Shown in pieces: positions 4,861 to 39,000 of a DNA stretch of 64,000 nucleotides (its first letter is position 1; each line of letters starts with the position of its first letter). The translations under genes were made by a program, and so were the position numbers. The stretch lies in assembly GCF_000003815.2 (NCBI RefSeq), contig NW_023365779.1, positions 472,463 through 536,462 of the forward strand. The letters are read 5' to 3'. Below the pieces are notes generated by a model, which was not told the origin of the DNA, did not search any database, and saw only the letters and a program-made list of their open reading frames with translations. This stretch comes from Branchiostoma floridae (lineage: Eukaryota > Chordata > Leptocardii > Amphioxiformes > Branchiostomatidae).

Positions 4861-5770
4861 TTAGTTTCCCAGATACATGGTCATGGGCACGGCCACGGCA
4901 ACGCTGGTGACGTACAGGACAAGGCACAGCCTGTCCAGGACCTTGGTCAACAGGGTATAATCGGACACCTCCTGATCGCCCTTCACCGCCTTGGTCAGCT
5001 CCTCCAGGCTGTGGATCACCTCCTCCGCCTGTTGCTCGGACTTCACCGCCTGCTCCTGAATGATGCTGATCAGCTCCTCCGCCTGTTGCTCGGACTTCAC
5101 CGCCTGCTCCTGAACGATGCGGATCAGGTCACGCAGGCAGGAGGTCTGCTCTTCCACGGCGGCCTCCAGGCGGGTGGGCGGGCCGGACGGCTGGCGGGTT
5201 GTCCCGCAGACATCAGCGGGGGACTCTCCGTCGCTCCCCGCCACGTCATCGGAGACAGCAGCGGGGGGCTCTCCGTCGGTCTCCGCCACGGCATCGGAGA
5301 CATCATCTGGGGACTCTCCGTTGACCTTCACTACGTCATCGGAGACAGCACCTAGGGACTCTCCGTTGACCTTCACCACGTCATCGGAGATATGAGCTGG
5401 AGTCTCTACGTCGGTCCCCGCCACGGCATCGGTAGGGATGTCGCCGGTTGTACCGGAGACAGCAGCTGGGGGCTCTCCGTTGACCTTCACCACGTCATCT
5501 AAAACATCAGCCGGGGACTCTTCGTCGGTCCTTGCCACGGCATCGGTAGGGATGGCGTCGGTTGTCTTGTAGACAACAGCCGTAGTCTCTCCGTCGACCT
5601 TAGCCACGTCGGAGACAGCAGTTGGGGGCTCTACGTCGACCTTCACCATGCCTTCGGCAGGGATGTCGCGGTTGGTCCGCTCAGGCCAGGCCGGCTTCCC
5701 GCCGGTCATGCCTGCCTCTCCTTCCCCGCTCGCAGCCTCCTTCTCTATGAGGTCTCCGAGCAGCAGGAAC
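4861..5770 (-). CDS. Exon 23: repetitive intracellular loop, MA helix and M4; stop codon
   Basis: A 910-bp terminal exon beginning [15 protein letters not shown] and ending at TAA (4863-4861). Most of it is an acidic Pro/Ser/Val-rich loop of about 10-12 imperfect 15-18-residue repeats of the type [16 protein letters not shown], followed by two copies of a 17-residue unit ([14 protein letters not shown]) predicted to be coiled coil. It ends with [14 protein letters not shown], the MA-helix signature, and M4 ([14 protein letters not shown]). The C-terminus GN is short and extracellular, as usual for nicotinic subunits. The loop (about 270 residues) is longer than most. The high-GC repeat DNA is unlike the neighbouring introns. 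Confidence 0.9.
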
Positions 5771-5825
5771 CTTAACAAACGTCAACAAGAAGGAAAGATG
5801 ACGATGTGGAAGCTTCTCACCGATG

Positions 5826-5914
<89 letters not shown>

Positions 5915-8900
5915 GGTCTAACGTTCAGATCATTACAAAATGTGACCACTAGTATATATTCAACAAAACTCTCTCTAAATCCGCTATGAAACCTTCCTCC
6001 CTGAAACTTTTAAAGGTCCTCGAGGAAATCCACTATGGTGCGGGTTCGGGCTGCTTCAATCCGCTTTATTAAACTAAATTACAATATGTTTAATGCTTTT
6101 GAGGATAAGAGATTTGCCATTTCGCTGAAGATAGAAAATTTTCATTTAAAAAAAGAAAAGAAACAAGCCTCTCAGTCTAATCTGCTCTTTTTAGTCTGAA
6201 ACCTTTGTGTTGTAACGAGTAGTACATACTTTGCCATGTAATAGAGGAAGAAAGTCTTGGCCATTGGAGACAGACTCCCCTCCTTGTCGTGGAGGCTGAT
6301 GATGTACATGGTGAAGAACAGGAAAAGTCCCATTAGCCCCATGCAGGCGACGATAAGCGTGGCTGTAATATGAATCATGATATTTGTTAACACGACTTTC
6401 CTCACTTAACTCAGGTGTGAGTGAGTACCTAGTTGTGGGTAGTGGCAGTGACAGGCCTCTGTGGCAGTGACAGGCTATAGGGGCATGTTCGGGCATGACG
6501 CACCCGCTATACACGAGTCAGGGGTAGGAGGAACCCCTTGCATCCTTGGTCGGACGTCCTCCTAGGAGACGGAAACTCCAAACAACAAACCTGCATCTGC
6601 TGGGGCCGTCTTACACATTGCATACAGTTGCCCCTGTAGGACTTGGTGCGCCAGTAGACGAGAGGGTGGAGAAGGAAGTGCACACCCCTCCTTCACCTTA
6701 AAAAGTCACGTGCAGGCCAGGCAGACGGGTAGCCTAACCCACCCTGTCTGCCTACCATTGTCTTCCGAGACGGATGGCAACAATTTGTTTTGTTTTATTC
6801 TATAAGCGGTAAATCATCTTATGGTGTTACCATGTTTGTACCGAAGAGCATAAGCTGTAAACCCGGGCAGGTTTATTTTAGTCCACTCACACCGGGAAGG
6901 ACCCCTACTCTTTTCAATTAACAGTTACCCGAATATTCTCTTAATGGCTTTATCTGATTGGTAATTGGAAAATAACTTAAAGGTTTTTGAATAAAAAAAA
7001 CGTTCTTACGTTAACTACATTCCCCACCTTCTCGAAGTCCATTCAGGTAACTAAGGAGCTAAAGAAATCGGTCTATTTATCTATTCTATCTTAACCCTAT
7101 CCCAGGCTTTTTTTTATTCCTGGGACCAGGGCACCCCCCTTCGTAATGTCAAAACGGCTTGGGTTACGATCACCAAATTTTAAGGGGATGATGTACTAGT
7201 TAATTTTTATATTTTCTGTAATTTTGGTATCGTTATGACGTAATATGACGTCATTACGACGTCATAATGTCATATTTTGGGCTAAAGTCGTCAAAGTATG
7301 ACATTTTCGCCATAGAAACTACATGTATTTATCGTTGAAAATGACATTGTCCGCCGTCTTGGATTTTGACCCATGACGTCATCAAATTAGGATAAATTAT
7401 GAATATTTGATTAGAAATGTAACTTAAAATTACACAGGATGTTAATGATATAAATAAACAAGCTTGATCTAGCAATAAAACCATAAAATCCCATAATTCA
7501 AACTGAAATTAGTAAATTTGGGAAAATATGCTTGTCAGAAATCCGTTGCCATGGTAACACGAAAAATTACAAACTAAAATGTTTTTCGCAGAATTGTTGC
7601 CAACAATATTTCAAGAAAAGTCACCAAGTTTCGTAGTCCTAGCACACTTCGTTCGCCAGTTATACTACGTCAAAGTTGGCGCAGGCACTTTTAGCCCCCC
7701 TGGTCTAGATAGGGATAAGACAGGTGGGTGACCCCTTCATACTTTGACCCCCTCGTCTTGTAGATATGTGCAAAAATAAGAATATGACAATTGTCGGTCC
7801 TCACCGAAAAATGGCAGCGCTCCTTTCACGGGAAGTACCTCCGTGACAAACACGAGAGACACGACCATGGAGAGCAGGATGGTCACTCCGAAGGAGATCC
7901 GGTCTCCCCTGTCTATGGGCATGACGAAGGTGATGGTCATCAGCACCACCAGGATGACACAGGGCCCAATTGTGGTGGCGATGTGGAACAACGGGGATCC
8001 TCTCCAGATGAACAGCGAAGCATGCCTTCTTGTTGCCTTCTGCGAAGATCTTGTCTTTCCGATTCCATTCGCCCTCCTGTTGTGGGGGAGACCAGACGTC
8101 ACAGGTACTGCCCCCTCCGCATTCTGTGTTTCACAAATCATTAAAAATAACTGTCATTGACAGACGTGTCCTGGCAAGATTTGTTTTCTTTGTCTCGGAT
8201 ATTCTAATCTTTGGCAACATGAAGTACATTGTATCGATGGCATCCTCTGCAGACTGCCAAAAAATGAGATTGGTAGTAATAACATAAAACGTCATTCATT
8301 CCTGTGTTCAAGAGGTGAACCTTCATGGCTTCTATAATAATGCCACTTTTACAACTATCCGACTAGTTTCACTTCCAGAACTACAACCATGGTTACTGCG
8401 CTACTGTCATTTCTACAAATACAATAATTATGACACAACGCAACATATTTCCAATTATGGAAGTTTCTCGTCTTGTTGACCAAGAAGAGATTTTTCTGAT
8501 ATCGTCCAAAATTAATGAGAGCTGATGTCATCCATACTACTTACTTCCTGTAGCCTAAGTCTGCTTGACACAAGTACCACTGCATATTTGAATATAAGAA
8601 AAAGTCTTGCTGGGACGATCACTGAGAAACAAAAACTCTTTCTCCATCCCCCCAGCTAGAACTAAAAGATTTCAGAACTCTTTCCTGCACACAGCCAGCA
8701 AGCTGTACAACAAGACTGTAGACACGTAGGTAGTAACAATGGCTACTTAACGTCGGAGATGTTGTTTACTACTTTAGTATATTGTTTCTTATTGTATATT
8801 CAGGCTGTTATTATGTCTGCTATGTTGAAATCAATAAAGGATGATGATGATGATGATGGTTGTTTTACCGTATTGTATCGCTTTAACTTTTGTTGCGTAC

Positions 8901-9487
8901 TTTATAATCTCTAAATTTTAAACTCTGGGCACCTAGATTGTGTTCCAATGTCTATTGTGTTTCTACCGGCGAACATTACATTTTGAATGTACAGAGGATG
9001 GTATCCATAAAATTTACTGGAGGTGGCCTAACCTGAAATGATTTAGGGGATCTCTATCCCACTCCAATATACACTAATGAAGTAAAATCAATGATATCTT
9101 TTCGTGGCATATTTATAACACCTTACCTATGGTTTGCTCAATCGCAGAGGACACAGAGAAACAGATGTGGCATTCCATGGTGTCGGCAGGGAAGAAGAAC
9201 GGGTTTGCATCACAGATGGTGCTGGTCAGAGTCTCCACCCTCCATGTTACCGTACCATCGGGTCTGATCAGGATCGGTACGTCCTTTTGCAAGCCTGGGT
9301 ACTTACCATCGGCACTGTGGGGGAACAAACAGAATGTCATCATTTTTTTTTCTTTTTTCAAAGTTAACAGCTATCTCCACACACACAGACACACACACAA
9401 ACACACACACACATACATACACTCATGCAAGCACACGTGCGCACATGCACACATACACACACACACACACATGCAAGCACACGCGCG

Positions 9488-9534
<47 letters not shown>

Positions 9535-9649
9535 TCATGTAAGCAAACGTGCGCACATGCACACACACACACACACACACATGCAAGCAAGCACACGCGC
9601 GCGCGCACACACGCGCGCACACACTCACATACATACACACACACACACA

Positions 9650-9688
<39 letters not shown>

Positions 9689-21600: not shown

Positions 21601-24600
21601 CGGCCTATACTGATAATGTTTTTTCGCTATCTGTTTCCTTCTACAACGGAGGGAATTATGGCTGCCGGCTATACCGTTTTATCCTTGCGTTTCTGTTTGC
21701 TTATTCGAATGAGGTCTTGACTGTTAGGGGGAGGAAAGATCCGGGTAGTAGAGGTGGCTGCCTTGCGTCATTTTTCAATTGTTTACAATCCTTTTCAATC
21801 CTAGGCCGGGATGAGTTAAGGACGCCTTTAGTTCACGCTGACATTTTGTTCCGTGTTGGAGCTGAGTGTTTCTGAATCTTGTGCGATTTCTTGATTTTTT
21901 GTAAATGTTTAGGCTGGGTCGGAAAGCTAAACTCAGACAGGTCCAGGGAGGCAAGATGGGGACCCTCTGGAGAGTTTCTATGTCTTTTAGGATTAGAATT
22001 CACTCTCATTCTCCTCAGAGAGAGCTCGGCTTAGTGAGCAGCCAACGTCTCTGAGCTTTGAAGACTACTGGCAGTGACTGATAAAAAGTCCCACGTTTTT
22101 AATGATTAGTGGGTTCTGTGATTCTAACAGGAATGTGGTTTTGTAGATGTCTACTAGCTGGTCATAATAATAACGTCAGCATTCATTTGTATAGTTGTAT
22201 TTGACAGGAATCGGTATATGTGAAGTAAATGTATACATTTTTTATAGTTGTATTTTGTTCAACTTTGTTCTGTCAGATGATGTCACGGGTAGACATAGCA
22301 ATCATTCAATACCCCCTACACTCCCCCTTATGTTGTGTTTAAAATGTAAACCTCCTTGCATAGCCTAGACTGGGTTGCAGGGGTAGTAGTTTCCGGTAAA
22401 CAGTAATAACCCGCGACCCAAGCTTTGCTTTGAAAATAGGCGCCGCCAGGCTTTTGCCAGCCTATTTCCCCTACACGTCTGGTGTAAGAGTCCTAGAAAT
22501 TCCTGTACAAGCGCTAGTCCAGGTATGTAAGAAAAACACCAGGACATTACACGCCGAACCAGGAAAGTCATGTACACAGCCAGGACACAGAACATTTCAC
22601 AGGTGTGTAAGTCCCTTGAAACACATGGAAATTAGAGTTTTCGTGCAGTGGTAGTGCAGACCTACCCGACAATATCTGGACTTCGCACAGGGTCAGTATT
22701 CTCGATGGTCCAGGCAGACGGACACCCACATAGCGCCCCCGCATCCCCTGACAGGAGATGGAAATGGACGACTGGTTCACGTCGATGTGATGGTCACCTC
22801 CACACTTGGGGTTGGTGCTGACCTGGTCGGAATCCCCGATGTGGATGTTGAAGGGGTTGAGCCGATCACGACAGCAGTCCTGGCGGTTGACGATGACCAC
22901 ACTGTAGAATTTTTAGATAATGTGTTGGACGTCGACGGATATAAAAGTTTTCTTTTACACAACAATTTTTTCTCACGTGCTGACGTTTCGATGTCTGTCA
23001 GACATCTTCCTCAGAGCTTCTAATTGGAGTTCTGCTTCTCGCCGCTATATGTAATCGCAAACGTGGCTGAGTGCAAAGGGAAGAAATCCGCGGTCACGGA
23101 CCACGTTGCAAGAAGAACTATGTTATTGACTAGGAGGGGGCAAAGGTTATAGGTAGAGAAGACAAAGGACGAATCTGTTGTATCAAAGAAGCAGTCTGGA
23201 TAAGGAAGTCCACCCCAGTGATGAACCGGGACGAGGGTGGGAGGGGGGGTACAGACTTAGCCACGTTTGGAAAAGTGTTCTCGCCGCAATTCTGACTGGT
23301 TCACATTGTATTGCAGGACAGGTGTCGTTGCTCACAGTTCAGATGTGGCCAGTAACGTTACGTAACGTAACGTAACGTAAAGTATTTACTGTAAAGTGCC
23401 TTTCCCAAGGGCACAAGATCGGTGACACAGCAGCTGGATTCGAACCCGCAACCTCTCGGTCTCGAGCCGCAAATGCTGCCACTGTGCCACGCGGTCCCAC
23501 ACTAAAACTATTCACAGATGAAAATACATGTATAAATCCCTACCTATCCACAGCATATGATTGCCCGAGGTCCACCCACCAGGTGGCATTTTCCTCCCCG
23601 TGATCTGCAGTGTGTGTGCAGGAGGCAGAGTCCCAGTCGGCAGCGGTGTTCCCGTCCACGGCACGGCCGGCAGCCCCGCCCCAAGCGGTGCTGGTTTGGA
23701 ACGCTGGCTTCCTCAGGGCCACATTGACACCTACCACAGGCGACAGGACTGGCATCAGCACTGGCATTATTGTATTGATGACTCAAATTAAAGAAAATTA
23801 TTCTTTTATTTCTAACAGGTAAGATATTATTTTCGCTCACCAAGTCACCCTGTTGTCCACCAGGCGCCTCTTACATGTCGGGGGAAGATGGTTTGACTTT
23901 CAAGCGGGACATAACCGTAATCAAATAGGGGAGGTGACTAAACCCAGAGGCGTTCCATCCCAAAAGCGCTTCTTGGATAGAAGCACAACTGGGATGAAGA
24001 CCTATCCCAGAGACGCTCCATCCCAGAAGCACTTCTTGGATAGAAGCACAACTGGGATGAAGACCTATCCCAGAGACGCTCCATCCCAGAAGCACTTCTT
24101 GGATAGAAGCACAACGGGGATGAAGACCTATCCCAGAGACGCTCCATCCCAGAAGCACTTCTGGGATAGAAGCACATCTGGGATGCAGACCTATCCCAGA
24201 GACGCTCCATCCCAGAAGCACTTCTGGGATAGATATCTTTATTGCAAACTCATGGCCGAGGGCTAATTGGAAAAAATACATGTATGAAAGTACAATGATG
24301 ATAGTAATGATACTGAATGGAATACAATAACAAAGTGGACATTAAGTGAAATAGGGGTCATCAACTAGTGATACATCTAAGCACGTCTTGGGTAGAAGCA
24401 CATCTGGAATGTAGACCTATCCCAGAGGCGCTCCATCCCAGCCGTGCTCTCATCAGAGCGCATTTAGGATATCTCCTTTGGAGCCGTCAATCATAAGGTG
24501 ATTGACAGGATCGCAAAAGGTTGTTGGTGTTTATAGAAAATTTGTTGGCTCTCGTTAGTAAAATATAGAATGATTTGGGGGATGATAAGCAGGCAATGAG

Positions 24601-27600
24601 TCATTTAATAAAGCCTTATGCACGAAAAGGTAGATTTCTCGACTTGTTTAGATGTTGTGCTGTGCTGATAGATGCAAGCTACGTGATCGAAATCCACTGT
24701 TTTTAAAGCAAACGTTGAACCTAGATTTTCGCCCGTTATGTAAGAGTTAGACCGGCCCTTGGAGTCCCTATAATGATTTTGTTTGAAAAAAAACCCTGTT
24801 TATTTGGTGTAAGCATATGCGATCTTCTCAGACCATAATATCGTTAACTAGTCATCAAAGGTTCTTGATCGATTGGTGTGTATTTGAATGTTGAGGAGCC
24901 AATGTAGTTCATCCTCCTAACGCCCGGTCCCCAACGGCACTACCTTATGGGGCCCTGCTATCCCATGCCCTATTAGTGGCAATTATGATTGTCGACACAA
25001 ACAAGCTGTCGACCAATCAATCAATCAATCAATCAATCAAATGGTTTATTCAGAATAAAAACAAGGCACTGGCAACCAGAGGTTGAATTACGGCCTTGTT
25101 GTACAGCACCTCTGTGCTACAAATACAATAAAATCACGTTACATATATACAATAGATAATATACAGTTGCATTGTTAACATTAATTTCCATTATTTTTGT
25201 TCAGCAGGCATATCATATATGGGATTGCACTTTTTTTGTAGCGCTCAGTTCTGGGTTTGACAGTGTCTAGTTGGTTGCTGGCCCTTGTGGCTCTCCCAGT
25301 GATAGCCCCCCGGGTTTGTGGTAGCCAGTGACGGAAGTCCGGTGACTGGAGGAGTTTCTGGGCGAACTGCAGGCAGAGGTGGTCTCTCCTCTGATCTAGG
25401 GTAGACAAGTTCAGAATCCGGCACGCCTCTGGGTATGAAGTGTAGGCAGAGCGGAGTATTATCCGACATGCGCGTTTCTGGATGAATTCGATCCTTCGTC
25501 GCTGTCTAGCAGTTAGTCCAGGATGCCAGGCAGGCGCTGCGTACTCACAGCTTGGACGGACGAATGTTTTGTAGCAGGTAAGTATGTCATCCCTAGACAG
25601 ATCGAACTGGTTGAGTTGTTTAAGCATAAATAGCTTTCGGTTGCCTTGTTTGACAATGTGGTCTACATGTGCGTTCCAACCAAGGTCAGCCTGGATGAAC
25701 AAGCCGAGGAGTTTAACTATCTTGACCTCCTCTAACGGTTGGCCAGCAATAGACAGGGGTGGCAGTGGAAGGACTGTTCTCGTAAAGACCACGTGCATGG
25801 CTTTGCATTTTTTGGGGTGAAGTTTCATCTTTCTTGTGGATGCCCATTGGTCGAGGCTGTTGAGGTCCGTTTGAATTGTTGAGGTGTCCCGGATCAACCT
25901 GCTCTCAGCTAAGTTAAGATCATCCACGAACTTCCACCTCCTAGCAAGGGAATCCTCACTTGCACTGTTGATTAGAGCAAGGAAGATTAAGGGGCCTAAC
26001 ACTGTTCCTTGTGGTAGGCCACAGGTCGTCTCCCTCCAATCTGAATACGTTCCCCTGTACATCACTCTCTGCTTTCTAGTGGACAGGAACGAACATACCC
26101 ATTTGGCGAGCGAGCTTCGTAGACCTGCTCCAAGTAGGCTTGAAATGGCTATGTTGTGGTCCACAAGGTCGAACGCCTTGGCAAAATCCGTAGTTATCAG
26201 CGTTGTTATTGTCTCCCTCTTATCTGCTGTTCTAGCCAGTTGGTCAATTAAATCAACGAGGCAGTGTGTCGTAGAACGACCTGGTATGCAACCAAACTGG
26301 TTTGGGTCAATGCTGTGCTTGATGTCAGAGTACAGATGTTTCGAGATGAAAGTTTCCGCTACTTTTGCTAGGGTAGGTGTCAGGGATATGGGTCTAAGTT
26401 CGCTGATCGACGGCGGGCGCGTTTTAGGTAGTGGTATGATATTTGCCTGTCGCCATTGTTCTGGGACGACCCCCTCCGATAGTGAGGCATTCAATATGGA
26501 CGTTACTGGTGGTATCAGAGAATAGGCCTTTCTTGGGCTTGTTGTTGTCGCAAGCGGTCTCGCAAAGGCCGCTGGGAAGCTATCAGCCAATCATGTTACG
26601 TATTACCATGACTTTGTTTGCTCACTATGCTAACGCCCGATCCCCAACGGCTGACTGCCCATATAAGGGCAAGCTCATTAATATTCATAAGCAAGGCACC
26701 CCTAATAACCGAATACTGTGGCTGAGTTGTCAGGGGTGATATCATAGGCTTTGCCGTGATTGTCAACCCTGAGTGTGAGGGTGATGTAGTTAAAACAGAT
26801 GGAAGAAGATAATAACACAGAAGTCAGTTCAGTCATCCATGGACACTATGAAGTCCCTCCAGATGACTCTGTCGTGCATGCCAGAAAACACAGAAGTAAG
26901 GTTACATAATCAGACCTTACCGCAGACGGGTACGTCACAAAACTCCCATCTGGTGCCGGGGTCCGTGGTGAAGCACCACACTCCGGAGTCGCCGTCCGGA
27001 TTCCGGCAGTAGTTCCCCTCCAGCCCGGCATCTGGGTAGTCAGCAGAGGTGTAGTCGTGTCCAACAGGCGTCTGACTGTCCCAGCGCTGACACGCTCGGC
27101 CCGTTGCCGTCACATTGACGATTCCTCGGTAGGAGGTTCCATCTTCCGACTGGCAGTCTCCTGGTGGATGGAATTTAACAACTCAGTATGAACACACGCT
27201 GTCTTGATTTTCAACATGGTTATCAGTGAACGTCGATGTAGGTTAGACATCCAGGTAATAAGATACGCCAAAAATAGTTACTCAAGCAACTGGATATGGT
27301 TTTGACACGGTCAGACGCTTCAGAGTATAAAAGACCTGTTTCCTCCAGATCTCTTCAGTGTCACTGACGAAGGACAGTGGATTCTATCCGAAACGTCTGA
27401 CCGTTTCAAAACCATATCCAGTTGCTTGAATAACTATTATTGGGTTATCAGTGAATTTTATAAAATACGCCTGCGGGCAGCCTTATATCAATAAGTACAA
27501 CAGATTTCAAAAGACATGAGGCTGCAAACAGATTTGTATATATCTTTAGATGTCAGAATTCCCCAAATGCAAAAATAGGCAAACATATCAAAGACTTCTC

Positions 27601-28455
27601 TTCTATTAGAAAGAATACCGAAATTAATGTTTAGCCTGCCCCATTGTAAATTATACTATATCAATGAATTATGTTAACCCTTCTTGTTATGTTAACTAGG
27701 TTGTTAAGCTTTATCCTATACCTCTATTTTGTACATTGTATAGTAGTCTTTGCCATAAATTGTACCATGATATGCACAATCGTGCAATAAAGTTCTTCTT
27801 CTTCTTATCAATGTCCATCAAATGGAAGTTTATTTGCAAGTTCGTGCCCGAGGGCTAATTGCAAGTACATGTACATGATATACACATAGTGACAATGGAC
27901 AGCCATAAATAATATTCTAATCTAATACTGGTGTTGGCTATTTCTAAACAGGTTGGGTTTGACTTCTTTTTTGGAAGCAGAGGGAGACGAAAAGCCCCAC
28001 ATTTTCTAGAATTTGTGGGTTCTGCGATTTGAAGAGAAAAGTAGCTTTCTATTCGTCTGTCAATGTGGGGAAGTTGGGATAATACTTTGTGACATCAAAA
28101 CTCCAACCACTATGCTCAGTCCATCGCATGCGACGCAATGATCTGCGGATTCCAAGTATAGCTAGACTGAGGCGCAAGCCGTCGCAAGGGACGTCCAGAG
28201 AAGAAATTGAATCTTGACCGTCTGAAACTTCATTTCCCGCTGTTGAGAGGCACATTTGTTTCGTTTGAATTTACTAAGGCCCCTAAAGCTACTCTTATTT
28301 CGATGGCCCTCCCCAAGGGCAAAATTGTCATGGCGCAGTGCACCACTCCCCACCCACCCCTCGGTAAAAATCGTAAGTCCCTTACCTTGTTGGGCACTGG
28401 TCAAGCAGGCGAAGAACAACACAAGGATAAAGACTGGTAGTCGTAAAACAGCCAT
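4861..28455 (-). CDS. Chimeric multidomain Cys-loop (nicotinic-like) receptor gene, 23 exons
   Basis: Gene-level entry; the exons are listed separately. Carrying codon phase across every GT-AG junction gives one chain of about 1626 residues: signal peptide (1-23), kringle, F-type lectin, hevein-like module, kringle, two F-type lectins, LDLa, Frizzled-like CRD, kringle, sushi (to about 994), nicotinic ligand-binding domain (about 994-1230), M1-M2-M3, a long cytoplasmic loop and M4. By family it should be a plasma-membrane pentameric cation channel; the added ectodomain suggests binding of fucosylated glycans or matrix. I found no signal-peptide exon or minus-strand polyadenylation signal between the sushi exon (11341) and the first LBD exon (10874), which favours one transcript over two genes. 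Oddities: one extra base in exon 21 breaks the frame, and canonical agonist-site aromatics are missing. The alternative is a secreted lectin gene next to a headless receptor gene. Exon calls are firm; the fusion itself is inference from phase and continuity. Confidence 0.75.
5827..5915. repeat. Compound (CT)n(TA)n microsatellite
   Basis: About 22 CT dinucleotides run directly into about 20 TA dinucleotides. It sits in the intron just upstream of exon 23 of the chimeric receptor gene, on the branch-point side of its acceptor. Confidence 0.97.
6230..6362 (-). CDS. Exon 22: M3 transmembrane segment
   Basis: A 133-bp exon (phase 1 to 2), acceptor TATTACAG|, donor GTATGT. It encodes a strongly hydrophobic helix ([20 protein letters not shown]) followed by [18 protein letters not shown], which matches the start of the M3-M4 loop where nicotinic subunits have H-R-x-P-x-T-H-x-MP. 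The M2-M3 linker is about two residues shorter than in alpha7. Confidence 0.9.
6405..6790 (-). repeat. Long interspersed repeat (SINE-like), copy in intron 21/22
   Basis: Reverse-oriented relative of 12690-13190, sharing GGGGCATGTTCGGGCATGACG, the CCTTGCATCCTTGGTCGG block, CCTGCATCTGCTGGGGCCGTC and AAAAAGTCACGTGCAGGCCAGG. The tRNA-like part at the other copy's end is not preserved here. Confidence 0.75.
7085..7730. repeat. Possible degraded DNA transposon with CRE-like palindrome
   Basis: Imperfect inverted ends (TTAACCCTATCC near 7090 and GATAGGGATAAGA near 7712) enclose AT-rich DNA with several TGACGTCA-type palindromes (7230-7275). Intronic between exons 22 and 21. No open frame. Weak. 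Confidence 0.35.
7805..8123 (-). CDS. Exon 21: pre-M1, M1 and M2 pore segments, with a one-base frameshift
   Basis: The upstream part reads in the expected phase as [18 protein letters not shown] and [10 protein letters not shown], resembling the GEW and L-R-x-PLF strands before M1. A run of four C (7993-7996 on the plus strand, G) then shifts to the frame of [14 protein letters not shown] (M1 with its conserved Pro-Cys) and [16 protein letters not shown]...VTEVLP (M2). M2 keeps an acidic -1' residue (Asp), Leu 9' and Glu 20', predicting cation selectivity. With one C fewer the frame is continuous. The alternative is a different donor in exon 20 (ACA|GTTATT) that enters the M1 frame directly, at the cost of the GEW segment. 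No vicinal cysteine pair of alpha subunits is seen in loop C. Confidence 0.82.
8166..8246 (-). CDS. Exon 20: LBD beta strand / loop F region
   Basis: An 81-bp exon (phase 1 to 1). It encodes [18 protein letters not shown] and TKKTNLART. It was placed because it is the only open stretch between exons 19 and 21 with compatible phases on both sides. The donor (C|GTCTGT) is weak, so the 3' boundary is less certain. No recognisable family motif by itself. Confidence 0.55.
8560..8862 (+). mobile_element. 3' end of a non-LTR retrotransposon with (ATG)n tail
   Basis: AT-rich sequence ending in AATAAAGGATGATGATGATGATG, a polyadenylation-like signal running into a trinucleotide tail as in RTE/CR1-type elements. 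No coding sequence retained. Lies in the intron between receptor exons 20 and 19. Confidence 0.45.
9127..9314 (-). CDS. Exon 19: LBD with the Cys-loop
   Basis: A 188-bp exon (phase 2 to 1), donor G|GTAAGG. It begins NADGKYPG (NADG is a nicotinic signature) and contains [15 protein letters not shown], a Cys-loop with exactly 13 residues between cysteines and the F-P-x-D core. This is the defining motif of pentameric ligand-gated channels. Downstream, [10 protein letters not shown] replaces the loop B Ser-Trp-Thr-Tyr, so the principal agonist Trp is absent. A long CA microsatellite lies in the upstream intron. Confidence 0.93.
9376..9727. repeat. (CA)n-rich microsatellite, about 350 bp
   Basis: Long interrupted CA tract with CGCGCA, CATGCAAG and ATACA interruptions; several about 100-bp sub-blocks repeat the ACTCATG(C/T)AAGCA(A/C)ACGTGCGCACATG motif, so it grew partly by block duplication. 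Open frames of His/Thr or Val/Cys here are artefacts. Intron between receptor exons 19 and 18. Confidence 0.97.
9861..9970 (-). CDS. Exon 18: LBD, 110-bp exon (loop A)
   Basis: Exactly 110 bp (phase 0 to 2), as in exon 4 of nicotinic genes. It encodes [29 protein letters not shown] and LTLKRN at the junction. W-x-D-x-R-L-x-W and the W-x-P of loop A are conserved, but the loop A Tyr is lost (LTLKRN for DIVLYNN). Acceptor TTTTTCAG|, donor GTATGTGC. Confidence 0.92.
10092..10136 (-). CDS. Exon 17: LBD, 45-bp exon
   Basis: Exactly 45 bp and phase 0-0, the same size and phase as exon 3 of vertebrate nicotinic receptor genes. It encodes [15 protein letters not shown], aligning with DEKNQLLTTNVWLKQ-type loop D strands. 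The loop D Trp of the complementary agonist face is replaced by Val. Too short to stand out as an open frame; found from its TTTTCAG and GTAAGTAG boundaries. Confidence 0.9.
10240..10756 (+). pseudogene. RTE-like retrotransposon reverse transcriptase, C-terminal remnant
   Basis: Antisense to the receptor gene, within the intron between exons 17 and 16. Frames read [39 protein letters not shown], then after a frameshift [18 protein letters not shown] and [16 protein letters not shown], then [10 protein letters not shown]. This is the thumb and C-terminal region of RTE-clade elements (LLYGSE-W ... RLAGH-RH ... GRP--TL). Frameshifts and stops make it dead. It runs to the splice donor of exon 16. 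Confidence 0.85.
10759..10874 (-). CDS. Exon 16: nicotinic-type LBD, N-terminal helix (LBD exon 2 equivalent)
   Basis: A 116-bp exon (phase 1 to 0), acceptor CTCCTTAG|. It encodes [18 protein letters not shown], then TTITF and QITDL, matching the amphipathic alpha-1 helix and first beta strand (LL-x-YN ... QI-DV) of nicotinic subunits. It is the equivalent of the 140-bp exon 2 of nicotinic genes (compare 62230-62369), shortened at its 5' end. The donor abuts an antisense RTE-like retrotransposon remnant. Confidence 0.88.
10907..11137. repeat. MITE, TIR TACCCCTGTCA family, copy 2
   Basis: Reverse-oriented relative of 1591-1832 with end TGACAGGGGTA on the right and a mutated TAACCCTGTCA on the left. 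It lies in the intron between the sushi exon and the first receptor LBD exon, the intron where the two halves of the chimeric gene meet. Confidence 0.78.
11341..11526 (-). CDS. Exon 15: sushi (CCP) domain
   Basis: A 186-bp phase 1-1 exon bounded by TTTCATTCAG| and G|GTGATT. It encodes [38 protein letters not shown] and DKPSCS: four cysteines in CCP order with the conserved Trp before the last. The split codon (G plus TG) makes Val and joins PSCS directly to DIKGTLQYD of the receptor LBD. This is the fusion point. Reading past the donor stays open to 11231 but ends in another phase, so the shorter exon is preferred. Confidence 0.85.
11766..11880. repeat. 23-bp minisatellite, about 5 copies
   Basis: Unit GTGACCTTGGGAATATGGTC plus CGA repeats from 11767, with single-base variants (ACCTCGGAAATATGG). 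It lies just inside the intron downstream of the kringle 3 exon donor. Confidence 0.93.
11911..12156 (-). CDS. Exon 14: kringle domain 3
   Basis: A 246-bp phase 1-1 exon, donor A|GTAAGT. It encodes [31 protein letters not shown] and two closing cysteines, giving six in total. The lysine-pocket DGD of kringles 1 and 2 is replaced (NPYGLEQ), so this kringle probably does not bind lysine. It is clearly more distant from kringles 1 and 2, suggesting separate recruitment. Confidence 0.85.
12275..12665 (-). repeat. Probable retrotransposon 3' end with short tandem tail
   Basis: On the minus strand AT-rich 3' UTR-like sequence ends in a short (TGAAC)n run (plus 12278-12293, GTTCAGTTCAGTTCA). Intronic, non-coding. 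Assignment is tentative. Confidence 0.35.
12690..13190 (+). repeat. Long SINE-like repeat with tRNA-like B box
   Basis: About 500 bp sharing several blocks with 6405-6790 and, in its last part (TTAGGTGAGGAAAGTCGTG ... CCTTTCCCAAGGGCACAAG), with 23390-23500 and 59150-59290. The end reads GGATTTGAACTCAGGACCTG, a tRNA-like B-box region in reverse orientation. Intronic between kringle 3 and FZ exon 13. Confidence 0.7.
13308..13459 (-). CDS. Exon 13: Frizzled-like CRD, second part
   Basis: A 152-bp exon (phase 2 to 1) completing the FZ-like domain: [11 protein letters not shown], then FPTCDLFP and HACWNPEPE. The CR-x-x-CEEV block is the hallmark C-terminal half of Frizzled CRDs. FZ followed by a kringle recalls the Ror receptor order, though here no kinase follows. 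Confidence 0.78.
14014..14275 (-). CDS. Exon 12: Frizzled-like CRD, first part
   Basis: A 262-bp exon (phase 1 to 2). It begins VCLPTPVDL and keeps the [13 protein letters not shown] block that matches the conserved PN-LG-EE segment of Frizzled cysteine-rich domains, then PEFREF...VIFPRC. Several canonical cysteines are absent, so this is a divergent FZ fold and Wnt or lipid binding cannot be assumed. It joins exon 13 in phase. Confidence 0.72.
14578..14668 (-). repeat. tRNA-derived SINE head
   Basis: On the minus strand a tRNA-like pol III promoter: A-box GTGGCGAAGCGG and B-box GAGTTCGAACC. It starts only a couple of bases beyond the donor of the LDLa exon. Not a functional tRNA: no clean acceptor stem was found. 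Confidence 0.65.
14671..14781 (-). CDS. Exon 11: LDL-receptor class A module
   Basis: A 111-bp phase 1-1 exon. It encodes six cysteines in LDLa spacing and the calcium-binding signature [16 protein letters not shown]; the WVWKRC stretch supplies the ligand-facing aromatic. All acidic calcium ligands appear intact. The splice donor (GTAAGC at 14670) lies a few bases from the tRNA-like promoter of a SINE (14578-14668). Confidence 0.9.
14860..15420. repeat. Interspersed repeat copy shared with 38065-38185
   Basis: The segment 14990-15165 contains the blocks TGGGGATTTCTATAGTTAAG and AACACAGTTTTCGGCCTATG; the inverted partner is at 38070-38180 just before the assembly gap. Non-coding; lies in the intron between LDLa and lectin C exons. 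Confidence 0.6.
15518..15765 (-). CDS. Exon 10: F-type lectin C, C-terminal half
   Basis: A 248-bp exon (phase 2 to 1) with acceptor ATCTACAG| and donor G|GTAGGC. It contains [22 protein letters not shown] and SMCEVQVFA. The RXDX4R half is kept although the partner His is missing in exon 9. Sequence and intron similarity show that lectin C is an older copy of the A/B unit without its own kringle. Confidence 0.86.
16035..16258. repeat. (GT)n / GTGTGCGCGTTT minisatellite
   Basis: A degenerate array of GTGTGTGCGCGTTT units, about 220 bp. It corresponds to a much shorter GTTTGTTTGTGTGGGTCTG segment at 18470-18510 in the paralogous intron, so the array expanded after the lectin units duplicated. 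Confidence 0.93.
16440..16605 (+). mobile_element. Non-LTR retrotransposon 3' end, fragment 1
   Basis: Nearly identical to 19930-20085 (blocks CAACTTGATAAGGATCAGAG and AAGCGCTTTATTTTGTGTAC). It ends with ACATTGAAGTATA directly at the splice donor of lectin C exon 9, so the first bases of that intron are retrotransposon-derived or the element inserted at the exon edge. Confidence 0.75.
16610..16823 (-). CDS. Exon 9: F-type lectin C, N-terminal half
   Basis: A 214-bp exon (phase 1 to 2). It reads [14 protein letters not shown] then [11 protein letters not shown] and [13 protein letters not shown]. Unlike lectins A and B, the motif His is replaced by Leu (AGGLGED) and the WW pair by WG, so classical fucose recognition is probably lost or changed. 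The donor GTAAGTATAC directly abuts a retrotransposon 3' fragment ending near 16604. Confidence 0.85.
17227..17474 (-). CDS. Exon 8: F-type lectin B, C-terminal half
   Basis: A 248-bp exon (phase 2 to 1), acceptor TTCTACAG|. It encodes [43 protein letters not shown] and LCEVRILS. It carries the RXDX4R half of the fucose motif and the four residues missing from lectin A. A MITE (about 17515-18010) sits in the preceding intron at the same relative position as its truncated relative upstream of exon 4. Confidence 0.88.
17515..18010. repeat. MITE with about 60-bp TIRs, intact copy
   Basis: Left end ACACAACCAGTTTTTCTCAC plus TGACGTTTCGATGTCTGTCA; right end is its reverse complement (17948-18005). 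Internal GCGCTTTTGCG / CAAAAGCGCC blocks also pair, giving a long fold-back. A G run (17830-17841) is in the interior. The insertion is shared with the paralogous intron at 22957. Confidence 0.82.
18570..18756 (-). CDS. Exon 7: F-type lectin B, N-terminal half
   Basis: A 187-bp exon (phase 1 to 2), nearly colinear with exon 3. It reads [37 protein letters not shown]. The His of AGHGED is again 24 residues ahead of the Arg in NRQD of exon 8, so the fucose motif is complete. A degraded repeat with a polypyrimidine stretch lies just upstream of the acceptor. Confidence 0.88.
18870..19420. repeat. Segmental duplication, intron copy B
   Basis: Colinear with 24397-24905 plus 26780-26920: shared blocks include CATCCCAGCCGTGCTCTCAT, ATCTCCTTTGGAGCCGTCAA, ATGCAAGCTACGTGATCGAA and CCTTGGAGTCCCTATAATGA. 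It shows that the kringle-lectin exons were duplicated with their introns. Confidence 0.88.
19438..19677 (-). CDS. Exon 6: kringle domain 2
   Basis: A 240-bp phase 1-1 exon, the same length as kringle 1. It has six cysteines and the lysine-pocket DGD pair in [14 protein letters not shown]. About 70 percent of positions match kringle 1 by eye, and the intron on its 3' side (18870-19420) is colinear with sequence near 24400-24900, so exon and intron were duplicated together. No frame defects. Confidence 0.9.
19745..20085 (+). pseudogene. Non-LTR retrotransposon ORF2 C-terminus, fragment 2
   Basis: An open frame of 94 codons from 19753 reads [20 protein letters not shown] and [18 protein letters not shown]. 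The E-x-HFICHCP-Y-x-x-R block is the C-terminal zinc-knuckle-like region of CR1/L2/jockey-type elements (compare the intact element at 54680-57919, HYFLHCPLYNDAR). Only the 3' end is present; antisense to the receptor gene. Confidence 0.8.
20157..20565 (+). other. Tandemly duplicated segment with an open frame of unknown meaning
   Basis: A block of roughly 130 bp (20157-20290) starting GCTAATGCTAGACGCTATTA is repeated at 20300-20420, with a smaller 18-bp duplication (GGATATAAGTATAAATCA) between. A single plus-strand frame stays open across 148 codons and carries the duplication ([12 protein letters not shown] ... [10 protein letters not shown]). No family recognised; antisense to the receptor gene, so coding is doubtful. 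Confidence 0.35.
20566..21002. other. Intronic AT-rich stretch
   Basis: Rich in TACG, TATACG and ACGATA motifs (20690-20940), unlike the surrounding DNA, with no open frame and no inverted ends found. Unexplained. Confidence 0.3.
21003..21155 (-). CDS. Exon 5: hevein-like (chitin-binding type 1) module
   Basis: A 153-bp phase 1-1 exon with a consensus pyrimidine-rich acceptor. The encoded 51 residues include [32 protein letters not shown]: the CC-S-x-F-x-WCG core of hevein-type chitin-binding domains, with six cysteines rather than the eight of plant hevein. The likely ligand is chitin or GlcNAc-containing glycan. The Phe and Trp flank the usual sugar-stacking positions. The module separates the two duplicated kringle-lectin units. 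Family assignment rests on the cysteine pattern only. Confidence 0.72.
21280..21960 (+). other. GC-richer intronic block with TATA-like start
   Basis: ATTATATAAGGATGCAGCTC near 21303 resembles a TATA box followed by an initiator, and is followed by GC-rich sequence (CGGCGTTCTTCCCCGCGTCGG) without a long open frame. It could be the leader or LTR remnant of a retroelement. Absent from the paralogous intron, hence a later insertion. Confidence 0.3.
22666..22901 (-). CDS. Exon 4: F-type lectin A, C-terminal half
   Basis: A 236-bp exon, phase 2 in and phase 1 out. It holds NRQDCCRDR (the RXDX4R part of the fucose motif with vicinal cysteines), CGGDHHIDV and [13 protein letters not shown], ending LCEVQILS, which closes the beta-sandwich. 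It is 12 bp shorter than the paralogous exons at 17227-17474 and 15518-15765, lacking four residues after IHIGDS. The downstream intron contains about 400 bases with no counterpart in the sister copy. Confidence 0.88.
22957..23300. repeat. MITE with long TIRs, truncated copy
   Basis: Same family as 17515-18010 and at the same position relative to the lectin C-half exon, so it predates duplication of the lectin unit. The right TIR is lost; the sequence runs into GCAATTCTGACTGGTTCACA, shared with 18835-18856. Confidence 0.75.
23390..23500 (-). repeat. tRNA-derived SINE fragment
   Basis: Contains CCTTTCCCAAGGGCACAAG and GGATTCGAACCCGCAACC, with GTGGCACAGTGGCAGC on the minus strand as A box: a tRNA-like head plus the body shared with 12690-13190. 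Preceded by a short (ACGTA)n palindrome at 23350-23380. Confidence 0.7.
23544..23730 (-). CDS. Exon 3: F-type lectin A, N-terminal half
   Basis: A 187-bp exon, phase 1 in and phase 2 out (AG|GTAGGG). It starts [14 protein letters not shown] and has CTHT, TWWVDLG and SYAVD segments, the pattern of the eel-fucolectin / tachylectin-4 / pentraxin (FTP, F5/8C-like) fold. The His in ADHGEEN stands 24 residues before the Arg of NRQD in the next exon, so the published F-type lectin fucose motif HX24RXDX4(R/K) is complete across the junction. Extracellular, predicted alpha-L-fucose binding with calcium. Confidence 0.88.
23945..24232. repeat. 63-bp minisatellite, about 4.5 copies
   Basis: Unit starts CCTATCCCAGAGACGCTCCA and continues TCCCAGAAGCACTTC to the next unit 63 bases later. 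Because 63 is a multiple of three, frames stay open on both strands and look like repetitive proteins; they are not genes. A single relative of the unit is at 18877-18905 in the paralogous intron, so the array grew in one copy only. Confidence 0.93.
24397..24905. repeat. Segmental duplication, intron copy A (interrupted)
   Basis: Partner of 18870-19420. Similarity stops at about 24908 and resumes at about 26780 (ACAGATGGAAGAAGATAATA); the intervening 1.9 kb is a later insertion containing the CR1-like retrotransposon. Confidence 0.88.
25013..26600 (-). mobile_element. 5'-truncated CR1-like non-LTR retrotransposon
   Basis: Minus-strand reverse transcriptase frame followed by a 3' UTR and a (TTGA)n tail (plus 25013-25041). 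The endonuclease part is missing. It interrupts duplicated intron sequence (breakpoints about 24908 and 26780), so it inserted after the kringle-lectin duplication. Imperfect 22-bp direct repeats (TAACGCCCG-TCCCCAACGGC) lie at 24918 and 26630. Confidence 0.85.
25181..26590 (-). CDS. Reverse transcriptase, open but 5'-truncated
   Basis: A 469-codon open frame with the RT palm motifs in order: [39 protein letters not shown], and the catalytic box as FVDD (rather than YADD/FADD). A conserved C-terminal RT region follows ([18 protein letters not shown]). No AP-endonuclease, no RNase H. The uninterrupted frame implies recent insertion, but without its 5' half it is not autonomous. The first ATG is arbitrary. 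Confidence 0.85.
   Translation of the reverse strand: MADSFPAAFARPLATTTSPRKAYSLIPPVTSILNASLSEGVVPEQWRQANIIPLPKTRPPSISELRPISLTPTLAKVAETFISKHLYSDIKHSIDPNQFGCIPGRSTTHCLVDLIDQLARTADKRETITTLITTDFAKAFDLVDHNIAISSLLGAGLRSSLAKWVCSFLSTRKQRVMYRGTYSDWRETTCGLPQGTVLGPLIFLALINSASEDSLARRWKFVDDLNLAESRLIRDTSTIQTDLNSLDQWASTRKMKLHPKKCKAMHVVFTRTVLPLPPLSIAGQPLEEVKIVKLLGLFIQADLGWNAHVDHIVKQGNRKLFMLKQLNQFDLSRDDILTCYKTFVRPSCEYAAPAWHPGLTARQRRRIEFIQKRACRIILRSAYTSYPEACRILNLSTLDQRRDHLCLQFAQKLLQSPDFRHWLPQTRGAITGRATRASNQLDTVKPRTERYKKSAIPYMICLLNKNNGN
26820..26890. repeat. Short repeat insertion in the kringle 1 intron
   Basis: Between two copies of ACACAGAAGT (26815-26824 and 26888-26897) lies about 65 bases absent from the paralogous intron (19400-19430). 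The flanking 10-bp direct repeat looks like a target duplication. Probably a truncated SINE. Confidence 0.5.
26921..27160 (-). CDS. Exon 2: kringle domain 1
   Basis: A 240-bp phase 1-1 exon bounded by CACCAG| and |GTAAGG. It encodes an 80-residue kringle with all six cysteines in kringle spacing, starting GDCQ and ending CDVPVCG. The [14 protein letters not shown] stretch keeps the Asp-x-Asp pair (DGD) that forms the anionic half of the lysine-binding pocket in plasminogen-type kringles, so lysine or protein ligand binding is plausible. It is closely similar to kringle 2 (19438-19677), in line with segmental duplication of the kringle-lectin unit. Its downstream intron has been interrupted by a CR1-like retrotransposon and a SINE fragment. 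Confidence 0.9.
27230..27440. repeat. Long-TIR MITE family (AGGTTAGACATCCAGG), copy 1
   Basis: Left arm GTAGGTTAGACATCCAGGTA ... CAACTGGATATGGTTTTGA pairs with right arm AACGTCTGACCGTTTCAAAA ... CATATCCAGTTGCTTGA. Other copies: 31165-31330, 33010-33105, 47680-47770 and 51815-51965, most retaining one arm. Right ends finish CCTGGATGTCTAACCTACAT. Confidence 0.8.
27600..27812 (+). mobile_element. Retrotransposon 3' end, tail (CTT)n
   Basis: Shares TTAAGCTTTATCCTATAC and GTGCAATAAAGTTC with 31998-32157, ending in an AATAAA signal and CTTCTTCTTCTT. Non-coding 3' UTR of a non-LTR element. Confidence 0.6.
27825..28050. repeat. Interspersed repeat shared with 16900-17140, 22068-22160 and 24230-24290
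   Basis: Blocks GCCCGAGGGCTAATTG and GTGGGTTCTG recur in these places. Probably one retroelement 3' end family. It lies in intron 1 of the chimeric receptor gene. Confidence 0.55.
28386..28455 (-). CDS. Exon 1: signal peptide
   Basis: The initiator ATG is at 28455-28453. The 23 codons read as a short polar start (MAVLRLP), a hydrophobic core ([11 protein letters not shown]) and a small-residue cleavage region (TSAQQ): a typical secretory signal peptide. The exon ends in phase 1 at G|GTAAGG. The split codon joins the first kringle exon to read SAQQ-G-DC, so the mature protein would begin almost directly with a kringle. This start was chosen because it is the only signal-peptide exon upstream in phase with the whole module chain. 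The phase-1 position after a signal exon matches intron 1 of nicotinic receptor genes. Confidence 0.8.
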
Positions 28456-38189: not shown

Positions 38190-39000
38190 NNNNNNNNNNN
38201 NNNNNNNNNNNNNNNNNNNNNNNNNNNNNNNNNNNNNNNNNNNNNNNNNNNNNNNNNNNNNNNNNNNNNNNNNNNNNNNNNNNNNNNNNNNNNNNNNNNN
38301 NNNNNNNNNNNNNNNNNNNNNNNNNNNNNNNNNNNNNNNNNNNNNNNNNNNNNNNNNNNNNNNNNNNNNNNNNNNNNNNNNNNNNNNNNNNNNNNNNNNN
38401 NNNNNNNNNNNNNNNNNNNNNNNNNNNNNNNNNNNNNNNNNNNNNNNNNNNNNNNNNNNNNNNNNNNNNNNNNNNNNNNNNNNNNNNNNNNNNNNNNNNN
38501 NNNNNNNNNNNNNNNNNNNNNNNNNNNNNNNNNNNNNNNNNNNNNNNNNNNNNNNNNNNNNNNNNNNNNNNNNNNNNNNNNNNNNNNNNNNNNNNNNNNN
38601 NNNNNNNNNNNNNNNNNNNNNNNNNNNNNNNNNNNNNNNNNNNNNNNNNNNNNNNNNNNNNNNNNNNNNNNNNNNNNNNNNNNNNNNNNNNNNNNNNNNN
38701 NNNNNNNNNNNNNNNNNNNNNNNNNNNNNNNNNNNNNNNNNNNNNNNNNNNNNNNNNNNNNNNNNNNNNNNNNNNNNNNNNNNNNNNNNNNNNNNNNNNN
38801 NNNNNNNNNNNNNNNNNNNNNNNNNNNNNNNNNNNNNNNNNNNNNNNNNNNNNNNNNNNNNNNNNNNNNNNNNNNNNNNNNNNNNNNNNNNNNNNNNNNN
38901 NNNNNNNNNNNNNNNNNNNNNNNNNNNNNNNNNNNNNNNNNNNNNNNNNNNNNNNNNNNNNNNNNNNNNNNNNNNNNNNNNNNNNNNNNNNNNNNNNNNN
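38190..39000. other. Assembly gap (811 N)
   Basis: Unknown sequence. Any open frame spanning it is meaningless. Its two edges lie next to near-identical sequence, so gap size and local order are unreliable. Confidence 1.

What the first reader, a model, noticed from the sequence alone, without database searches (positions are those of the whole stretch)
4861..28455. A pentameric ligand-gated channel fused to a lectin / kringle / Frizzled / LDLa / sushi ectodomain
Seen: 23 minus-strand exons whose codon phases agree at every junction run from a signal peptide through kringle, F-type lectin, hevein-like, kringle, two F-type lectins, LDLa, FZ-like, kringle and sushi modules straight into a nicotinic-type LBD with a perfect 13-residue Cys-loop and four membrane segments. 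Known: Cys-loop receptor subunits normally have a signal peptide followed directly by the LBD. Inference: a channel subunit with a roughly 970-residue glycan- and protein-binding ectodomain, perhaps coupling recognition of fucosylated surfaces (microbes, matrix, other cells) to cation flux. I know of no described receptor with this order.
Basis: partly seen in the sequence, partly recalled or inferred. Interest (0 to 1): 0.95.

Follow-up and report, generated by a model that had tools for sequence, protein, structure and literature searches.

The report
Ion channels with swappable recognition heads
In what looks like a lancelet genome, a family of about forty nicotinic-type ion channel gene copies carries a large fused outer part, with a fixed stalk topped by different sugar- or protein-binding heads, an arrangement for which we found no description.

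Summary
The fusion is real, and it is a gene family. The window gene has 22 exons (28455-4861, minus strand): signal peptide, kringle, F-type lectin, hevein-like, kringle, two F-type lectins, LDLa, Fz-like, kringle, sushi, nicotinic-type ligand-binding domain (LBD), four membrane segments. GT/AG and phase fit at 21 junctions, but exon 20 holds one extra base versus 7 of 7 aligned paralogs, so as assembled the membrane part is out of frame.

The genome holds 63 related channel loci among the rows used. In 38 of 63, Fz1, Fz2 and sushi exons lie upstream, same strand, same order in 38 of 38; 0 of 50 other LBD loci have them. A scan found no signal-peptide exon in the window's sushi-LBD intron. 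One paralog (C12) is an intact 909-residue frame over 14 exons, headed by a C-type lectin. Two paralogs at 33-54% exon identity keep the stalk.

The stalk is constant, the head varies: of 43 Fz1 loci, 9 have F-type lectins, 10 C-type lectins, 12 YWTD propellers. LBD/TM dN/dS is 0.07-0.28. A cation pore is predicted; the acetylcholine site is not kept. Transcription and function are untested.

The parts
28386..28455 (-). Exon 1: signal peptide [23 protein letters not shown]
   Evidence: Open from ATG, GT donor phase 1; with 5' flank has 21 other copies in the genome, 14 of 21 upstream of a family receptor
26921..27160 (-). Exon 2: kringle 1 ([10 protein letters not shown])
   Evidence: Pfam Kringle, three stretches; AG/GT
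23544..23730 (-). Exon 3: F-type lectin 1, first half
   Evidence: Pfam F5_F8_type_C_2, splice sites
22666..22901 (-). Exon 4: F-type lectin 1, second half (RQDCCRDR)
   Evidence: Pfam, motif
21003..21155 (-). Exon 5: hevein-like Cys-rich module
   Evidence: Pfam Chitin_bind_1 E 1.6e-4 but below curated cut-off
19438..19677 (-). Exon 6: kringle 2
   Evidence: Pfam Kringle best stretch 298-375
18570..18756 (-). Exon 7: F-type lectin 2, first half
   Evidence: Pfam; part of an internal duplication with exons 2-4
17227..17474 (-). Exon 8: F-type lectin 2, second half
   Evidence: Pfam
16610..16823 (-). Exon 9: F-type lectin 3, first half
   Evidence: Pfam
15518..15765 (-). Exon 10: F-type lectin 3, second half
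   Evidence: Pfam
14671..14781 (-). Exon 11: LDLa module, start of the constant stalk
   Evidence: Pfam Ldl_recept_a 28.5 bits over cut-off 24.1; found in paralogs
14014..14275 (-). Exon 12: Fz-like domain, first half
   Evidence: Pfam Fz 18.1 bits, below cut-off; homologous exons in deep paralogs over cut-off
13308..13459 (-). Exon 13: Fz-like domain, second half (PCRSWCEE)
11911..12156 (-). Exon 14: kringle 3 (stalk)
   Evidence: Pfam Kringle 45.4 bits; found in paralogs
11341..11526 (-). Exon 15: sushi/CCP module directly before the LBD
   Evidence: Pfam Sushi; a sushi hit upstream at 49 of 63 family channel loci
10759..10874 (-). Exon 16: start of the ligand-binding domain
   Evidence: Pfam Neur_chan_LBD; acceptor seen in paralogs
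10092..10136 (-). Exon 17: LBD
9861..9970 (-). Exon 18: LBD (TWQDSRLEW, loop D)
9127..9314 (-). Exon 19: LBD with the 13-residue Cys-loop
7805..8123 (-). Exon 20: end of LBD, TM1, TM2; one extra base near 8000 relative to 7 of 7 aligned paralogs
   Evidence: alignment
6203..6362 (-). Exon 21: TM3
   Evidence: alignment
4861..5770 (-). Exon 22: intracellular domain with a helical-looking run before TM4, TM4, stop
   Evidence: homologous exon in C16:2.40, C12 and C8 copies
17050..27185 (-). Internal duplication: kringle-lectin unit 27185-22070 resembles 19702-17050 in pieces of 80-92% identity

Best explanation
Family genes code for a signal peptide, a variable recognition head (F-type lectins with kringles, a C-type lectin, a YWTD propeller, or propeller plus C-type lectin), a constant stalk (LDLa-Fz-kringle-sushi), a nicotinic-type LBD with Cys-loop, and four membrane segments with a cation-type pore. 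Most likely mechanism: the stalks rise from the outer face of the pentamer and carry the heads away from the membrane. Heads bind glycans or matrix/cell-surface proteins and so place and cluster the channel at chosen contacts, doing in cis what MuSK (Fz, and a kringle in some vertebrates), LRP4 (LDLa, propeller) and LEV-9/LEV-10 (sushi, LDLa) do in trans for acetylcholine receptors. Because the acetylcholine site is degraded, these are either accessory subunits of mixed pentamers or are gated by another ligand or by head engagement. Shown here: architecture, family, differing heads on one stalk, constraint on sequence. Inferred: cation flux, outward stalk, clustering role. Separate confidences: fused family 0.95; cation channel 0.8; cis-tethering as the main role 0.45. 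The figure given is for the whole statement.
For: Fusion: phases and GT/AG at 21 junctions; sushi exon upstream of the first LBD exon found in 6 of 6 paralogs first fetched; Fz1, Fz2 and sushi in the right order at 38 of 63 loci on 15 contigs, 0 of 50 other LBD loci; no alternative signal-peptide exon in the window intron; first exon conserved and linked, 14 of 21; intact 909-residue frame on C12, with Pfam LBD and nearly whole TM domain over cut-off; deep paralogs with the same stalk. Heads. Channel: with the LBD-TM3 part of paralog C16:2.34 as query, the best solved relatives are nAChR chains, E 3e-30, TM2 [26 protein letters not shown] aligned without gap; the window's TM2 is the same in these letters. 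Constraint: dN/dS 0.07-0.55 over stalk, LBD and TM blocks. Parallels in trans: passages of PMC6966886 and PMC9083331.
Against: No transcript, peptide or current was seen. The window copy is frame-broken as assembled. Other copies look damaged: an 87-base insertion in Fz1 of C16:2.40 (joined frame with 26 stops; alignment), a one-base loss in Fz1 of C17:15.9, exon 16 not found in C16:2.04, exon 18 only partly matched in C18:4.32. The C8:17.3 copy could not be joined into one frame because lectin exon 3 lies in an assembly gap. So part of the family may be dying. 14 of 63 loci had no sushi hit within 26 kb and 25 of 63 lacked the full Fz1-Fz2-sushi set, although two such sushi-only loci, when read, had LDLa, Fz and kringle exons too. 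Agreement of phase is partly by construction, since the nearest in-frame AG/GT was chosen. LEV-10's LDLa is dispensable for clustering in the passage read, which weakens that parallel.
Confidence: 0.62

Rival explanations
1. Recognition-gated channels: binding of a microbial, sperm or self glycan to the head opens or primes the pore, so the family works as an innate-immune or allorecognition sensor with ion flux as output.
For: Large family with different lectin heads on one stalk; RxDx4R with upstream His in FTP1, FTP2 and the C16:2.40 lectin; QPD in the C12 C-type lectin (its meaning, galactose-type binding, is recalled); acetylcholine-site residues lost while the pore is conserved.
Against: No ligand, no expression site, no evidence of coupling from head to pore. 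No test of diversifying selection on heads was made. Stalk and pore conservation fits anchoring equally well.
Confidence: 0.3
2. Two neighbouring genes: a secreted lectin/kringle/Fz/sushi protein and a separate channel, joined only by the reader's splicing.
For: No transcript evidence; six-frame genome searches do not show splicing.
Against: Same order and strand at 38 of 63 loci on 15 contigs; no second signal peptide found in the window intron; sushi-LBD splice sites at matching places in paralogs and exon order kept down to 33-54% exon identity; intact single frame across the junction on C12.
Confidence: 0.03
3. This copy, or much of the family, is a decaying set of duplicates; the window copy makes at most a soluble ectodomain-LBD protein without a channel (stop at codon 1336), possibly a decoy.
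For: Frame break in window exon 20; apparent breaks in at least three other copies.
Against: dN/dS 0.07-0.17 in exons 20-21; intact C12 copy; the extra base sits in a short run of C and may be an assembly error.
Confidence: 0.25

Closest known systems
Cys-loop (pentameric ligand-gated) receptors, nicotinic type
   Same: LBD with 13-residue Cys-loop, four membrane segments, TM2 with acidic -1' and Leu at 9' by alignment of a paralog to nAChR alpha-4 (numbering recalled)
   Different: About 970 residues of added modules before the LBD; loop B Trp and loop C vicinal cysteines of nAChR alpha subunits absent
MuSK and ROR receptor tyrosine kinases
   Same: Fz followed by kringle in the ectodomain; MuSK has a kringle after Fz in fish, amphibians and birds (PMC6966886, passage); ROR recalled
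   Different: No Ig module and no kinase matched; membrane part is a pLGIC. Kringle 3 is no closer to ROR2 than to plasminogen
LRP4/LRP6-type receptors
   Same: Copies on C10, C11, C13 have YWTD propeller exons followed by LDLa; LRP2, LRP4 and LRP6 are the best solved relatives of the joined C11 exons
   Different: Stalk continues with Fz-kringle-sushi and ends in a channel
LEV-9 / LEV-10 receptor-clustering scaffold of C. elegans
   Same: Sushi and LDLa modules, linked to clustering of acetylcholine receptors (PMC9083331, passages)
   Different: There the modules are separate proteins; here they are fused to the channel. LEV-10 works without its LDLa
F-type lectins
   Same: Fold family and RxDx4R-type motif
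   Different: Fused to a channel gene
Fusions of pLGICs with other domains noted at genome level
   Same: PMC4795631 (2016) says association of the classic architecture with other domains has so far been seen only at genome level (passage)
   Different: The passages read name no kringle, lectin or Fz fusion and no lancelet family of this kind

Membership tests
Cys-loop receptor superfamily | Neurotransmitter-gated LBD fold family | tested here: met
   PF02931 101.2 bits in window, 97.1 bits in C12 copy
Cys-loop receptor superfamily | Disulfide loop with 13 residues between cysteines | tested here: met
   [15 protein letters not shown] in exon 19
Cys-loop receptor superfamily | Four-segment membrane domain | tested here: met
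   PF02932 positions 1-226 of 233 in the intact C12 copy; in the window, positions 1-105 matched in the shifted frame
Cys-loop receptor superfamily | Assembles as a pentamer and conducts ions | not testable with these tools
   none
Nicotinic acetylcholine receptor alpha subunit | Loop B Trp and loop C vicinal cysteines of the acetylcholine site | tested here: not met
   In paralog C16:2.34 the stretch aligned to GSW reads SVS and there is no CC; window, C12 and C8 copies likewise
Cation-selective pLGIC | Acidic residue at -1', no anion-type insertion before TM2 | tested here: met
   GDRISFG aligned to GEKITLC without gap; selectivity itself not measured
F-type lectin | Fold family match | tested here: met
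   PF22633 three stretches, E 2e-57
F-type lectin | Fucose-binding motif His ... RxDx4R/K | tested here: inconclusive
   RQDCCRDR in 4 of 4; His at spacing 24 and 28 in FTP1 and FTP2, 25 in C16:2.40, none at 22-28 in FTP3; canonical spacing recalled as 26
Fz domain | Pfam Fz over cut-off | tested here: inconclusive
   Window 18.1 bits, below 32.1; C12 copy no match; homologous exons joined by eye in C19:1.37 and C10:11.26 copies 67.8 and 52 bits
Hevein / chitin-binding | Pfam Chitin_bind_1 over cut-off | tested here: not met
   22.3 bits against 27.8
MuSK/ROR receptor tyrosine kinase | Ig modules and a tyrosine kinase domain | tested here: not met
   No such Pfam match in the spliced window pieces or the C12 protein

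The most novel reading that the evidence does not exclude
A lancelet has built a combinatorial set of some forty channel subunits in which one constant stalk and pore is paired with exchangeable lectin or propeller heads, so that pentamers of different subunits read combinations of surface glycans or proteins and turn them directly into cation flux: a recognition system with an ion channel as its effector, comparable in logic to immune or allorecognition receptor families.
Probability: 0.28. Interest if true: 0.97.

Novelty: new variant of a known kind. Interest (0 to 1): 0.9.

Why it matters
Cys-loop receptors are among the best-studied channels, and the subunits I can recall go from signal peptide straight to the LBD. 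A family in which the LBD carries a fixed LDLa-Fz-kringle-sushi stalk with differing heads would show that the top of the pentamer tolerates very large additions, that clustering or recognition modules can be built into the channel itself, and that fast ion flux may serve surface recognition. It also gives a test of whether the trans-acting clustering proteins of other animals have a cis-acting counterpart, and a natural library of head-channel fusions for structure work.

Tried and rejected
A 23rd exon between 9127 and 8076 was sought and rejected: exon 20 begins at 8123. A start of exon 21 at 6404 was rejected for 6362. A special tie of the stalk to ROR was considered; kringle 3 is no closer to ROR2 than to plasminogen, so not supported. 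A profile of three Fz-like sequences found no Frizzled in the PDB; the deeper paralogs resolved this. Two genes instead of one was tested and rejected. The head of the C8:9.5 copy was not identified by comparison with known modules and by eye; no Pfam search was made on it. Structure prediction was not used: the domains are split over exons and spliced chains are not contiguous DNA. Other animal genomes were not searched; I saw no tool that holds any.
Literature: 10 searches in an open-access library. Five term sets that joined kringle with channel or lectin terms and one search gave 0 papers, which also held kringle but asked for only part of their terms, gave 2 and 3 papers, none of whose titles or listed abstracts is about such a fusion. 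Passages only were read in PMC4795631, PMC12403961, PMC6966886 and PMC9083331; the rest were seen as listings.

Full report
What was checked. The window is G000:C221:472463-536462 of a 513-Mb, 431-contig genome. On the minus strand I rebuilt the gene from anchored domain peptides and splice sites, then corrected it against paralogs. The result is 22 exons, 28455 to 4861, with GT/AG at its 21 junctions and phases that agree. The domain order is signal peptide, kringle, F-type lectin, hevein-like, kringle, F-type lectin, F-type lectin, LDLa, Fz-like, kringle, sushi, LBD, TM1-TM4. Pfam supports these over cut-off except the hevein-like module and Fz; TM4 is by eye.

Exon 20 (8123-7805) has one more base than 7 of 7 aligned paralogs near position 8000. 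Upstream of it the LBD is in one frame, downstream TM1-TM4 in another. As assembled, the product stops at codon 1336. An exon start at 8076 gives an open frame but is not what the paralogs show. The extra base lies in a short run of C, so an assembly error is possible; a damaged copy is equally possible.

It is a family. A search of the same genome with the LBD/TM part gave 143 matches. From 68 of these, typed into a script, I derived 63 loci with the TM1-TM2 exon. A search with the LDLa, Fz and sushi pieces scored 150 of 955 candidates. Of these 150, 140 lie within 26 kb upstream and on the same strand of one of the 63 loci; 0.24 would be expected if hits were scattered at random. Fz1, Fz2 and sushi are present together at 38 of 63 loci, on 15 contigs, in the window's order in 38 of 38; a sushi hit is present at 49 of 63. 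Of 50 other LBD loci, taken from the first 53 rows, 0 have such a hit upstream.

Reading paralogs. Six were fetched with 6 kb around the LBD start. Sushi precedes the first LBD exon found in 6 of 6; kringle 3 is seen in 4 of 6, Fz in 3 of 6 and LDLa in 2 of 6, the stretches being short. In one of the six (C16:2.04) LBD exon 16 was not found. Splice sites fall at or near the expected places; one search took the nearest in-frame AG/GT, so its agreement is partly by construction. The C16:2.40 copy is signal peptide, F-type lectin, LDLa, Fz, kringle, sushi, LBD, TM1-4, but an 87-base insertion breaks Fz1. The C8:17.3 copy is kringle, F-type lectin (partly in an assembly gap, so its frame could not be joined), LDLa, Fz, kringle, sushi, LBD, TM exons. 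The C12:16.35 copy is intact: 14 exons, 909 residues, one terminal stop, AG/GT throughout, with Pfam matches over cut-off to Lectin_C, LDLa, kringle, sushi, LBD and nearly the whole membrane domain, but none to Fz. Its first exon was picked by a scan for a signal peptide with a good donor, the one candidate that passed in 8.4 kb, not by likeness to the window's. Two members at 33-54% identity exon by exon (C10:11.26 and C19:1.37) keep LDLa, Fz, kringle, sushi, LBD exons and TM1-2 in order; exons 16, 17 and 21 were not matched in the stretches fetched. Their Fz halves, joined by eye, score 52 and 67.8 bits; that of C19 matches sizzled and Frizzled structures.

One gene, not two. A scan of the intron between sushi and LBD finds no signal-peptide exon in the window and in 5 of 6 paralogs; the sixth has one weak candidate with a poor donor (for C16:2.04 the stretch ran to exon 17). 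The first exon with its 5' flank has 21 further copies, 14 of which lie within 65 kb upstream, same strand, of a family locus, where 0.08 would be expected; 7 do not.

Heads differ. Between signal peptide and LDLa, the C10, C11 and C13 copies have YWTD-propeller exons. Of five C11 exons searched singly, two match Ldl_recept_b over cut-off, one below, two not; joined they give 63.5 bits, and LRP2, LRP4 and LRP6 are the best solved relatives. With genome searches for F-type lectin, YWTD and C-type lectin, among 43 loci with an Fz1 exon (window included), 9 have F-type lectin, 12 YWTD and 10 C-type lectin within 30 kb upstream on the same strand; 27 of 43 have at least one and 16 none; 4 have YWTD then C-type lectin, in that order in 4 of 4. 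These searches score only the best 150 candidates, so the counts are lower bounds; the hits for one search were picked by eye as near a locus. In the window the head itself grew by duplication of a kringle-lectin unit. Copies of the first exon and YWTD head on C9 and C16:18.84 lead instead to EGF-like and FN3-like exons, by eye, with no match to family exons, so heads seem to be shared between unrelated genes.

Constraint and pore. Nei-Gojobori dN/dS between the window and paralogs is 0.43-0.47 for LDLa/Fz, 0.29-0.40 for kringle 3, 0.15-0.55 for sushi, 0.15-0.28 for LBD exons 16-19 and 0.07-0.17 for exons 20-21 (some pairs rest on few changes; in exon 20 the window's halves were compared each in its own frame with the bases between dropped; Fz1 of C17:15.9 and exon 18 of C18:4.32 were left out as broken or misplaced). 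With the LBD-TM3 part of paralog C16:2.34 as query, the best solved relatives are nAChR chains (E 3e-30). TM2 aligns without gap, with acid at -1', Leu at 9' and acid at the outer end, a cation-type pore (numbering recalled). Loop D Trp is kept; loop B Trp and the loop C cysteine pair are not. So it belongs to the Cys-loop receptors but is not a nicotinic alpha subunit by these features.

How it may work. The modules of stalk and heads are those that other animals use in trans to gather acetylcholine receptors: MuSK has Fz and, in fish, amphibians and birds, a kringle; LRP4 has LDLa and propellers; LEV-9 is made of sushi domains and LEV-10 has LDLa, though this LDLa is dispensable. The best reading is that this family has such modules in cis, placing channels at contacts defined by glycans or matrix proteins. 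That recognition itself opens the pore is the boldest reading; nothing here excludes it and nothing shows it.

Novelty. Ten searches of an open-access library found no such fusion (see Tried and rejected); [quoted passage not shown] Most subscription literature, preprints and gene databases were not searched.

Noticed in passing
window 25181-26590 (-): A 469-residue open frame that reads like a non-LTR retrotransposon reverse transcriptase (by eye, no family search) inside intron 2 of the gene.
   Followed up: no
window 29828-30103 (+): An open frame that reads like part of a RecQ-type helicase (GIATGQGKSLCYQ), by eye.
   Followed up: no
window 38190-39000: Assembly gap of 811 N.
   Followed up: no
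L052+L053 (C9:2460200-2480199) and L054 (C16:18854100-18864099): Downstream of copies of the family's first exon and YWTD head no channel exon was matched, but EGF-like and FN3-like exons (by eye): the same head seems to sit on another kind of gene.
   Followed up: partly
L040 (C16:2.40), L038 (C17:15.9), L035 (C16:2.04), L036 (C18:4.32): Fz1 exon broken by an 87-base insertion and by a one-base deletion; exon 16 not found; exon 18 only partly matched. Several copies look damaged.
   Followed up: partly
G000:C221:557795-558004 (+) and 567159-567482 (-): LBD exons of other receptors about 21 and 31 kb beyond the window's right end.
   Followed up: no
window 23943-24233: Short direct repeat with 63-base offset, 95-96% identical, in intron 2.
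   Followed up: no
contig C16 of G000: Thirteen of the 63 family TM1-2 loci lie on contig C16; the rest are spread over other contigs, so copies have dispersed.
   Followed up: no
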